The translations under genes and the position numbers were made by a program. A stretch of DNA of 64,000 bases from Candidatus Providencia siddallii (GTDB lineage Bacteria; Pseudomonadota; Gammaproteobacteria; Enterobacterales; Enterobacteriaceae), in assembly GCF_964026685.1 (NCBI RefSeq), contig NZ_OZ034688.1, forward strand, positions 372,001-436,000, in the 5' to 3' direction. The notes beneath the pieces are model-generated. The model ran no database searches. It was not told the DNA's origin and worked only from the letters and a program-made list of their open reading frames with translations. Below, one piece after another: positions 37,652-39,778 of the stretch (positions are counted from its first letter, which is position 1; each line of letters begins with the position of its first letter).

Positions 37652-38386
37652 ATGAACCATAATAAAAAAATTGCATTAGTAACTGGTGCTAGTCGAGGTA
37701 TTGGTAAAGCAATCGCTTTAAAATTAATGAAACTTGGAATAATTGTTGTTGGAACATCTACAAATAAAATAGGAGCTGAAACAATTTCAATTTTTTTAAA
37801 AGAAAAAGGAAAAGGATTAATATTAAACGTAACAGAATCTATATCAATTAAAAATACTTTAACAAAAATACGAGAAACATTTGGTGAAATTGATATTTTA
37901 ATTAACAATGCAGGTATAACACATGATAATTTGTTAATTCGTATGAAAGAATATGAATGGTATGATGTTATCAATACAAATCTTTCATCAGTTTTTCATT
38001 TATCTAAATCTGTGTTGCGTAGTATGTTAAAAAAACGTTATGGACGAATTATTTCAATTTCATCTGTTGTTGGTATTATTGGGAATATAGGACAAACTAA
38101 TTATGCAGCTGCTAAAGCTGGATTAATTGGTTTTACTAAATCATTAAGTCAAGAAGTAAGTTCTCGTGGAATAACAGTAAATGTTGTCGCTCCTGGTTTT
38201 ATAGAAACTGATATGACTAAAACATTATCAGATTTACAAAAATCAAACATTTTATCTAAAATTCCTATAAATAGGTTAGGTTATACAAACGAAATTGCTA
38301 ACGCTGTAGCATTTTTGGTTTCTGATGAAGCTGCTTATATTACTGGTGAAACATTACATGTAAATGGTGGTATGTACATGGCTTAA
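37652..38386 (+). CDS. fabG: 3-oxoacyl-ACP reductase
   Basis: NADPH-dependent reductase of the fatty-acid elongation cycle. The 244 residues equal the E. coli length. Features of the short-chain dehydrogenase family are T-G-A-S-R-G-I-G near residue 11, N-N-A-G-I near 86, the catalytic Ser in S-I-S-S-V and the Y-A-A-A-K motif near 151. It is followed by the acpP leader and acpP. Confidence 0.97.
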   Translation: MNHNKKIALVTGASRGIGKAIALKLMKLGIIVVGTSTNKIGAETISIFLKEKGKGLILNVTESISIKNTLTKIRETFGEIDILINNAGITHDNLLIRMKEYEWYDVINTNLSSVFHLSKSVLRSMLKKRYGRIISISSVVGIIGNIGQTNYAAAKAGLIGFTKSLSQEVSSRGITVNVVAPGFIETDMTKTLSDLQKSNILSKIPINRLGYTNEIANAVAFLVSDEAAYITGETLHVNGGMYMA

Positions 38387-38470
38387 AATTGAAATTTTAC
38401 ATCACTAAATTAATATTATACAATTATACTTTTAATATCTATAATTAAATTATCTTTTTTTATATTTTAA

Positions 38471-38520
38471 AAAACTACGAAAACTATCGCGAAAGCGAAT
38501 TTTGATAGGAATTTAATATT
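38471..38520 (+). promoter_or_regulatory. conserved acpP leader with GNRA hairpin
   Basis: The 50 bases before acpP nearly copy the E. coli acpP leader as I recall it: ACTACGAAAAC..ATCGCGAAAGCGA then TTTTGATAGGAA. A short hairpin, TCGC (38487-38490), GAAA loop (38491-38494) and GCGA (38495-38498), has a stable GNRA-type tetraloop. A second pairing, CTATC (38484-38488) with GATAG (38504-38508), would partly cover the AGGA binding site. This level of non-coding conservation stands out strongly in the window and suggests a selected translation or stability element. Confidence 0.65.
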
Positions 38521-38757
38521 ATGAGCACTATCGAAGAACGTGTTAAAAAAATCATAGTTGAACAACTTGGTGTAAAAGAAGAAGAAGTTGTTAACACAGC
38601 TTCATTTGTTGATGACTTAGGAGCTGATTCTCTTGATACAGTCGAACTTGTTATGGCTCTTGAAGAAGAATTTGATTGCGAAATTCCTGATGAAGAAGCT
38701 GAAAAAATTACAACAGTACAAGCTGCAATTGATTATATTAAAAATACTTCTAAATAA
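38521..38757 (+). CDS. acpP: acyl carrier protein
   Basis: Carries growing acyl chains on a phosphopantetheine arm. The 78 residues equal E. coli AcpP. The attachment Ser is in [10 protein letters not shown] (about residue 37), and the protein is acidic throughout. The coding sequence is much less AT-biased than its neighbours, as expected for strong purifying selection and high expression. A strong terminator follows at once. Confidence 0.98.
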
Positions 38758-38771
38758 CTATGAAGTTATTA

Positions 38772-38820
38772 CTAGACGTGAAATATTTCACGTCTAGAAT
38801 TTTATTTATTTTATTTTTTT
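38772..38820 (+). terminator. strong intrinsic terminator after acpP
   Basis: A perfect 26-base palindrome at 38772-38797 (arms CTAGACGTGAAAT and its complement) is followed by a T-rich tract to 38820. It is the longest GC-containing hairpin in the window and isolates acpP from pabC. Loss of fabF, which follows acpP in E. coli, leaves this terminator directly before the gap. Confidence 0.9.
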
Positions 38821-38953
38821 AAAATTAAAACATCAAAAAAATATATTTTATATGAAAATAAATCTTTTAAATTAATTTTTAAAATAAATATTTTTTAAAG
38901 TTTTTTAAATTTATTTATAATAAAATTATTAAATATAAAATTAACTAAATAAA

Positions 38954-39778
38954 ATGTCATGTTGGATTAATGGTCATAAAAATAACCAAATTAATATTAC
39001 TGATAGATCAATATCTTTCGGCGATGGATGTTTTACTACAATTTTTTGTTTTAATCAAAAAGCTATCATGTTAAAAGAACATATCATTCGATTAAAAAAT
39101 GATTGCAAATGTTTAAAAATATCACAACCAAATTGAAATAAATTAAATAAACATATAAAATATATATGTAAATTACAAAATAAAAACAAATTTATAATAA
39201 AAATAATTATTAGTCGTGGAAATGGAACTCGTGGATATAGTTCTAAATTAATTAATAATTGCACTACAATTATTATGATTATGCCTTTTCCTAAACATTA
39301 TAAAAAATTACAAAATAACGGTGTAAAACTTTTTATTAGTAGTATTTCGTTATCTCGAAATAAATTACTATCAGGAATAAAACATTTAAATCGATTAGAA
39401 CAAGTTTTAATTTATCAAGAAATTGATAAAAAAGGTTATGATGAAGCTATAGTATTAGATACATCTGGGATTATAATAGAATGTTGTACTTCAAATATAT
39501 TTTGAAGAATAGGTTTAAAAATTTATACACCTATTTTATCACATTCAGGTATAAATGGAATAATGAGACAAAAAATAATAAAAATTTTATCTAAAAGTTA
39601 TTTTCATTTAGAAGAGATTAAAGCTTTTCCAAAAATATTATTAAAATCTGATGAAGTTATAATTTGTAATTCTTTAATGCCAATATTTTATGTTAATTAT
39701 ATTAAATTTAAATCTTTTAAAATAACTAAAAAATACTATTCTAAAAAATTATTTAATTATTTAAATTTTTATAAATAA
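38954..39778 (+). CDS. pabC: aminodeoxychorismate lyase, with two in-frame UGA (Trp) codons
   Basis: PLP enzyme that releases pyruvate from aminodeoxychorismate to give p-aminobenzoate for folate. With TGA as Trp the frame has 274 codons (E. coli 269). TGA codons at 61 (39134-39136, Q-P-N-W-N-K-L) and 184 (39503-39505, S-N-I-F-W-R-I-G) both match Trp in E. coli (D-F-W-P-Q-L; A-N-L-F-W-R-K-G). Other conserved segments are I-N-G-H-K, F-G-D-G-C-F-T-T, I-S-R-G-N-G-x-R-G-Y, the PLP lysine in G-I-K-H-L-N-R-L-E-Q, and G-I-M-R-Q. Under the standard code it would be three pieces. It forms a tight run with mltG, tmk, holB and tatD. Confidence 0.95.

What the first reader, a model, noticed from the sequence alone, without database searches (positions are those of the whole stretch)
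38471..38520. Strongly conserved acpP leader with a GNRA hairpin
The 50 bases upstream of acpP resemble the E. coli acpP leader almost base for base (from memory), in a genome where other intergenic DNA has decayed to A/T. It contains TCGC-GAAA-GCGA and an alternative pairing CTATC/GATAG next to the ribosome binding site. This could be an RNA element that tunes translation or stability of acpP mRNA.
Basis: partly seen in the sequence, partly recalled or inferred. Interest (0 to 1): 0.6.

Follow-up and report, generated by a model that had tools for sequence, protein, structure and literature searches.

The report
Conserved hairpin before the acpP gene
The messenger RNA for acyl carrier protein, which cells need to make fatty acids, carries a tiny hairpin at a nearly fixed distance before the ribosome's landing site; it is kept in many related bacteria, including shrunken symbiont-like genomes, so it is probably a working RNA part, though what it does is untested.

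Summary
The window leader matches the E. coli K-12 acpP leader at 43 of 48 bases with one gap, and TCGC-GAAA-GCGA (38487-38498) occurs once in the 755,758-bp genome. Among 90 family genera with genomes of at least 3 Mb, 56 share all 50 bases. Across 77 genera of 25 other families a short hairpin of changing sequence persists: 61 of 77 against 20.8 expected; upstream control stretches are enriched too, but less. A chosen 15-family subset shows covariation. The hairpin ends 6-10 nt (mode 8) before the Shine-Dalgarno core in 39 of 75 leaders against 4.6 in shuffles; other genes show little of this. I read it as a real 5'-UTR hairpin in register with the ribosome binding site; function untested. 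Same-genus G394, where searches found no Hfq or RppH and one RNase E/G copy, keeps a 9-bp stem. Against: folds that include coding sequence are not unusually stable. No Rfam match. Separately, this genome appears to read UGA as tryptophan.

The parts
38487..38498 (+). core hairpin: TCGC (38487-38490), GAAA tetraloop (38491-38494), GCGA (38495-38498)
38480..38503 (+). possible lower stem AAAA (38480-38483) with TTTT (38500-38503), internal loop CTA/A; in E. coli AAAAC/GTTTT with a 2-nt bulge
   Evidence: fold of the leader alone; not in the RNAalifold consensus; its C-G pair is unpaired in 13 of 46
38475..38508 (+). possible outermost stem CTA (38475-38477) with TAG (38506-38508); overlaps the expected promoter/start region
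   Evidence: pairs 6-44, 7-43, 8-42; not in the RNAalifold consensus
38499..38506 (+). 8-nt gap between hairpin and Shine-Dalgarno core
38507..38510 (+). Shine-Dalgarno core AGGA
   Evidence: sequence; AGG invariant in the 46 rows of A1
38500..38536 (+). possible Shine-Dalgarno-straddling helix TTTTGATAG (38500-38508) with codons 3-6 CTATCGAAG (38528-38536); not seen beyond near relatives
38521..38757 (+). acpP, acyl carrier protein, 78 aa
38772..38797 (+). terminator-like hairpin after acpP (11 pairs, then a T-rich tail)
38417..38445 (+). promoter-like match TATACA-17-TATAAT; consensus match only (9 such matches in the stretch, 4.3 in shuffles)

Best explanation
It is a small, conserved RNA hairpin in the 5' untranslated leader of acpP mRNA. 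Shown by comparison: a hairpin is kept while its bases change, and its 3' base lies most often 8 nt upstream of the Shine-Dalgarno core. Inferred: it folds the upstream leader into a compact knob just outside the ribosome binding site, leaving an open single-stranded landing stretch for the 30S platform and keeping upstream RNA from pairing with the binding site, so that this essential mRNA is translated at a steady high rate. A side effect on RNase E access to the same stretch is likely but also inferred.
For: Near-invariance over 90 genera with genomes of at least 3 Mb: 56 identical over 50 nt, 89 within 6 mismatches; -45..-1 mean pairwise identity 0.968 against 0.651 for -150..-101, ungapped; the most variable hairpin column is the N of GNRA, 0.79. 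Stem in 61 of 77 leaders of other families against 20.8 expected (z 11.5), and in 18 of 26 one-per-family leaders against 7.6. Covariation on 47 chosen leaders from 15 families: 90.2% paired against 79.6% shuffled, score 0.256 against 0.115, doubly changed cells 14 against 3.9, 0 of 500 for each; pairs with double changes 3 against 1.5, 34 of 500. RNAalifold on the family alignment finds the 4-bp core. Gap to the Shine-Dalgarno core 6-10 nt in 39 of 75 against 4.6 (sd 2.1, maximum 11 in 200 shuffle rounds); gap IQR 8-10 against 7.25-11.75 for the distance to the -10 box. Leaders of other genes: 12 of 137 against 7.9 (sd 3.4) in G469, 2 of 14 against 1.7 in E. coli. By the standby formula As = 15 + P + D - H (PMC3936740, passages), the 4-bp form with P 8, D about 4, H 6 gives about 21, nearly open (my arithmetic, start site inferred).
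Against: No expression, probing or ribosome data. With 40 nt of coding sequence the folds are no more stable than shuffles in E. coli (z -0.01) and little more in the window (z -0.76), and the E. coli minimum-energy fold lacks the core hairpin while its centroid keeps it. RNAalifold finds no fold on the 15-family alignment. Family covariation is weak. Forbidding the core hairpin leaves predicted Shine-Dalgarno accessibility unchanged in E. coli (0.63) and the window (0.48); it falls in G394 with a longer leader (0.67 to 0.53) but rises in G042 (0.66 to 0.76). Upstream stretches are stem-enriched too: other families -122..-92 42 of 77 against 23.9, -162..-132 31 against 19.6, -82..-52 33 against 25.7; family -162..-132 48 of 124 against 28.5. 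10 of 57 stems in other families have a gap of 12. PMC11087576 (passages): single upstream hairpins alone did not raise translation, in another layout. The set (79 leaders, mostly gammaproteobacteria, some inside the order) shows no folding excess: mean z -0.30, control -0.32.
Confidence: 0.48

Rival explanations
1. 5'-end guard or processing element: the hairpin lies close to the mRNA 5' end and sets how pyrophosphate removal, RNase E or RNase G attack acpP mRNA.
For: Inactivation of RNase G leaves a 5'-monophosphate RNA whose end is the acpP start site (PMC4191395, one passage); six possible RNase E sites in the Salmonella acpP 5' UTR (PMC8096218, passages). In 41 reduced genomes a scored hairpin goes with RppH: 16 of 21 with RppH, 3 of 20 without, Fisher p 1.3e-4.
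Against: No RppH was found in G394, G062, G480 and G498, yet all four have a stem. RNase E/G is in one copy in G000 and G394, read as RNase E. Half-life is about 3 min in Salmonella and 4.4 min in E. coli as quoted in PMC8096218, which I take as ordinary. The gap to the Shine-Dalgarno core varies less than the distance to the -10 box.
Confidence: 0.25
2. DNA-level constraint: promoter, start region and Shine-Dalgarno are conserved and the inverted repeat is incidental or an operator.
For: Conservation runs on into the -35/-10 region (0.933), where E. coli has its promoter; stems are also enriched further upstream.
Against: Stem bases and loop lengths differ between families while pairing holds, unlike an operator. 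In the window the leader is better kept (43 of 48) than the promoter stretch (20 of 32).
Confidence: 0.11
3. Shine-Dalgarno-occluding switch: GATAG pairs either with leader CTATC or with codons 3-6 CTATCGAAG.
For: The codon helix is 9 of 9 in 91 of 134 family genomes, stronger than leader shuffles in E. coli, the window and G394 (p 0.013, 0.003, 0.000) and in single genera of f5, f11, f22 and f26; it appears in E. coli folds.
Against: Early-codon identity (9 of 9, E. coli and G469) is shared by yceD (8 of 8), plsX (5 of 5) and mfd (5 of 5).
Confidence: 0.08
4. Binding site for a trans factor (sRNA with Hfq, a ribosomal protein, or AcpP/fatty-acid enzymes in feedback).
For: Extreme sequence identity in free-living genera; RgsA acts on the AcpP mRNA in Pseudomonas aeruginosa (PMC6890931, passage).
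Against: Sequence is free between families. No Hfq was found in G394, which keeps the stem.
Confidence: 0.08

Closest known systems
Standby-site modules in bacterial 5' UTRs (Espah Borujeni, Channarasappa and Salis; PMC3936740, passages seen)
   Same: one hairpin flanked by single-stranded stretches upstream of the Shine-Dalgarno sequence
   Different: the passages describe 62 synthetic leaders with hairpins of 9-18 bp; here a natural 4-bp hairpin with a near-constant 8-nt gap in many genera; function untested
5' stabiliser hairpins such as that of ompA (recalled)
   Same: hairpin near the 5' end of an mRNA
   Different: no sign of a long half-life in the one paper seen; spacing follows the Shine-Dalgarno core
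Rfam cis-regulatory leaders
   Same: conserved structured leader
   Different: no Rfam 15 match for acpP leaders: window 38000-39200 searched to E 10 (one unrelated weak match), seven related loci at gathering (none)

Membership tests
GNRA-capped hairpin | closed stem with GNRA loop | tested here: met
   GAAA in the window; GNRA in 99 of 112 family hairpins with TCGC/GCGA, out of 134 genomes; not general in other families
Conserved RNA secondary structure | compensatory changes above shuffled controls | tested here: met
   15-family alignment, (0 of 500 on three of five measures, 34 and 19 of 500 on the other two); 12 family rows and 35 of 77 other genera chosen, 11 families left out. Against: family-only alignment weak, RNAalifold finds nothing on A2
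Standby-site module | hairpin with single-stranded flanks upstream of the Shine-Dalgarno sequence | tested here: inconclusive
   geometry fits, but the flanks are predicted partly paired with coding sequence in E. coli and the window
Standby-site module | geometry sets translation rate | not testable with these tools
   needs reporters
5' stabiliser hairpin (ompA type) | prolongs mRNA half-life | not testable with these tools
   half-life about 4.4 min in E. coli, quoted in PMC8096218
5' stabiliser hairpin (ompA type) | hairpin within a few nt of the 5' end | tested here: inconclusive
   start site inferred from the promoter only: hairpin starts a median 10 nt after the -10 box
Shine-Dalgarno-occluding switch or thermometer | conserved pairing that covers the Shine-Dalgarno sequence | tested here: not met
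Any Rfam 15 family | score at or above gathering | tested here: not met

The most novel reading that the evidence does not exclude
An undescribed leader element of acpP, kept across the order, with two length states: RNA started at the acpP promoter carries only the 4-bp hairpin and an open 8-nt landing stretch, whereas read-through RNA from fabG also carries the upstream A-run, forms the longer stem that swallows the UUUU of that stretch, and is translated less well, so that promoter use sets acyl carrier protein output per message.
Probability: 0.12. Interest if true: 0.6.

Novelty: new member of a known kind. Interest (0 to 1): 0.42.

Why it matters
acpP is essential and growth reacts strongly to small drops of its mRNA (PMC2698124, passages); its start region is a standard antisense target. 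A conserved structure next to the start would bear on how its level is set. It is also a natural test of standby geometry: spacing kept while sequence was rewritten, and a stem still present in a genome where searches found neither Hfq nor RppH and one RNase E/G copy.

Tried and rejected
Shuffle folding alone is only modestly in favour (mean z of -45..-9: family -1.03, other families -1.17; control stretches family -0.22 and 0.02, others -0.64 and -0.69). Of 61 upstream pairs between the two same-genus genomes acpP ranks 5th by gapped score (41 identities) but is below the median without gaps (21 against 24 of 50) because of a 1-nt shift; two of the four above it look like internal starts of coding frames (my reading). 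E. coli against the Providencia-like G469: acpP 47 of 50, first of 13 genes with at least 45 nt of non-coding upstream. Synonymous conservation of codons 2-10 looked special but is shared by other genes. Paper searches aimed at this leader (listings only unless a passage is cited) showed no description of the hairpin; most subscription papers are not held, so absence from print is not shown. Rows dropped: G428 and G462 (no start codon by my rule) out of 136 family genomes with a match; 17 of 63 distinct leaders too unlike the consensus for A1; 42 of 77 other genera, 11 of 25 families, for A2.

Full report
What is there. The window belongs to a single-contig genome of 755,758 bases. acpP is at 38521-38757. 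The stretch 38471-38520 holds TCGC-GAAA-GCGA at 38487-38498 and AGGA at 38507-38510. From ACTACG to the start it equals E. coli K-12 at 43 of 48 bases with one gap. The hairpin word TCGCGNAAGCGA is found once in the genome. The leader alone folds at -7.6 kcal/mol, z -2.09; E. coli -10.2, z -2.48; same-genus G394 -6.2, z -2.29. With 40 nt of coding sequence z is -0.76, -0.01 and -1.81, and the E. coli minimum-energy fold then lacks the core hairpin, though its centroid keeps it; from an inferred start at -39 with 60 nt of coding sequence the E. coli fold does contain it.

Conservation. 'Family' is the tool's group f1, that of the window. Of 149 family genomes searched 136 had a match and 134 gave a start codon by my rule; they are one per genus, except that G000 and G394 share one. 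Ninety have genomes of at least 3 Mb: 56 carry the same 50 bases and 89 lie within 6 mismatches. Mean pairwise identity is 0.968 for -45..-1, 0.857 for -100..-46 and 0.651 for -150..-101; the counts are ungapped, so upstream values are understated. I infer a start about 37-41 nt before the codon; I found no mapped coordinate.

Reduced genomes. G394 has changed bases (ACAAAAATTATCACAAAAGATAGTTTTGATAGG) yet folds a 9-bp stem AAAATTATC/GATAGTTTT. G042 has TCAT-GAAA-GTGA: one G-C to A-U and one C-G to U-G change. By my rule (TCGC/GCGA or at least 4 pairs with 2 G-C) 19 of 41 reduced genomes score a hairpin; the rule misses G394. Between G000 and G394 the acpP leader ranks 5 of 61 upstream stretches by gapped score and has 14 G+C of 50 against a median of 5.

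Other families. In 77 genera of 25 other families the same place often holds a hairpin of other sequence: ACGC/GCGT, CGCC/GGCG, CGCT/AGCG, GCAATTT/AAATTGC and others. A stem of at least 4 pairs with at least 2 G-C occurs in 61 of 77, 20.8 expected (z 11.5), and in one-per-family leaders in 18 of 26, 7.6 expected. Controls in the 77: -82..-52 33 against 25.7, -122..-92 42 against 23.9, -162..-132 31 against 19.6; one per family: 7 against 6.9, 16 against 8.2, 8 against 6.3. So stems are also enriched upstream, less strongly. On a structure-blind alignment of 47 chosen leaders from 15 families the stem is paired in 90.2% of cells against 79.6% shuffled and the covariation score is 0.256 against 0.115, none of 500 shuffles reaching either; the outer pair is U-A in 28, A-U in 10, G-C in 2 and unpaired in 7. 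Related sequences inflate such tests, rows were chosen, and RNAalifold reports no fold there. Within the near family covariation of the whole structure is weak, and RNAalifold keeps only the 4-bp core.

Register. The stem's 3' end lies 6-10 nt before the Shine-Dalgarno core in 39 of 75 leaders of other families, 4.6 expected, mode 8 (22 of 57 stems), with a second group at 12 (10 of 57); in the family 32 of 37 stems, from 59 distinct leaders, have exactly 8. The distance to the -10 box varies more in the other families (IQR 7.25-11.75 against 8-10). Other genes' leaders show little excess: 12 of 137 against 7.9 (sd 3.4) in a Providencia-like genome, 2 of 14 against 1.7 in E. coli (frames called mechanically). 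This ties the hairpin to the ribosome binding site rather than to the promoter, and is my main reason for preferring a translation role.

Factors. RNase E/G occurs in one copy in G000 and G394, read as RNase E from length and place. Hfq is found in G000 and not in G394; RppH likewise. Absence rests on search cut-offs and on an assembly of about 96% completeness. So the stem in G394 probably does not depend on these.

Verdict. That a conserved RNA hairpin exists I hold at about 0.8. That it acts mainly by shaping the ribosome's landing site I hold at 0.48; 5'-end decay control at 0.25. No Rfam family fits, and my paper searches (listed under Tried and rejected) showed no description of it.

Aside. 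While checking the next gene I found in-frame UGA codons at tryptophan positions: of 38 in-frame UGA within alignments to G394 in 224 kb, 32 face W, while UGG faces W 377 times; among 80 genes with both ends aligned the stops are TAA 75, TAG 3, TGA 2. Two release-factor-family genes are present in both genomes. I recall a report of an alternative genetic code in a leech Providencia symbiont, but could not open it; the nearest named AcpP is from Providencia rustigianii (96%).

Noticed in passing
window 39134, 39503 (pabC-like frame 38954-39778), 41093, 7200, 7647, 49693, 54807, 20268, 24515, 4478, 26044, 55390, 55693: In-frame UGA codons facing tryptophan in the same-genus genome G394: 32 of 38 in-frame UGA in 224 kb; the pabC-like frame is open over 274 aa if UGA is read as tryptophan. 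Suggests UGA read as tryptophan, perhaps at an early stage, since UGG still dominates (377) and TGA ends 2 of 80 aligned genes. Possibly known for a leech Providencia symbiont (recalled, not seen).
   Followed up: partly
G000:C1:618146-618472 and 704723-705049: Two genes of the release factor 1/2 family are present in G000 and in G394, unexpected if UGA were fully reassigned; whether one is a working release factor 2 was not checked.
   Followed up: partly
about -105 to -80 before acpP in the family (consensus, 106 rows chosen by likeness): Conserved TGGTTTGACCA resembles the FadR operator core (motif recalled); I do not see it in the window by eye. The stretch -122..-92 is enriched for stems in leaders of other families.
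   Followed up: no
window 38757-38954: acpP is followed by a strong terminator-like hairpin (38772-38797) and then a pabC-like frame; fabF, next in E. coli, is not there. It was not looked for elsewhere.
   Followed up: no
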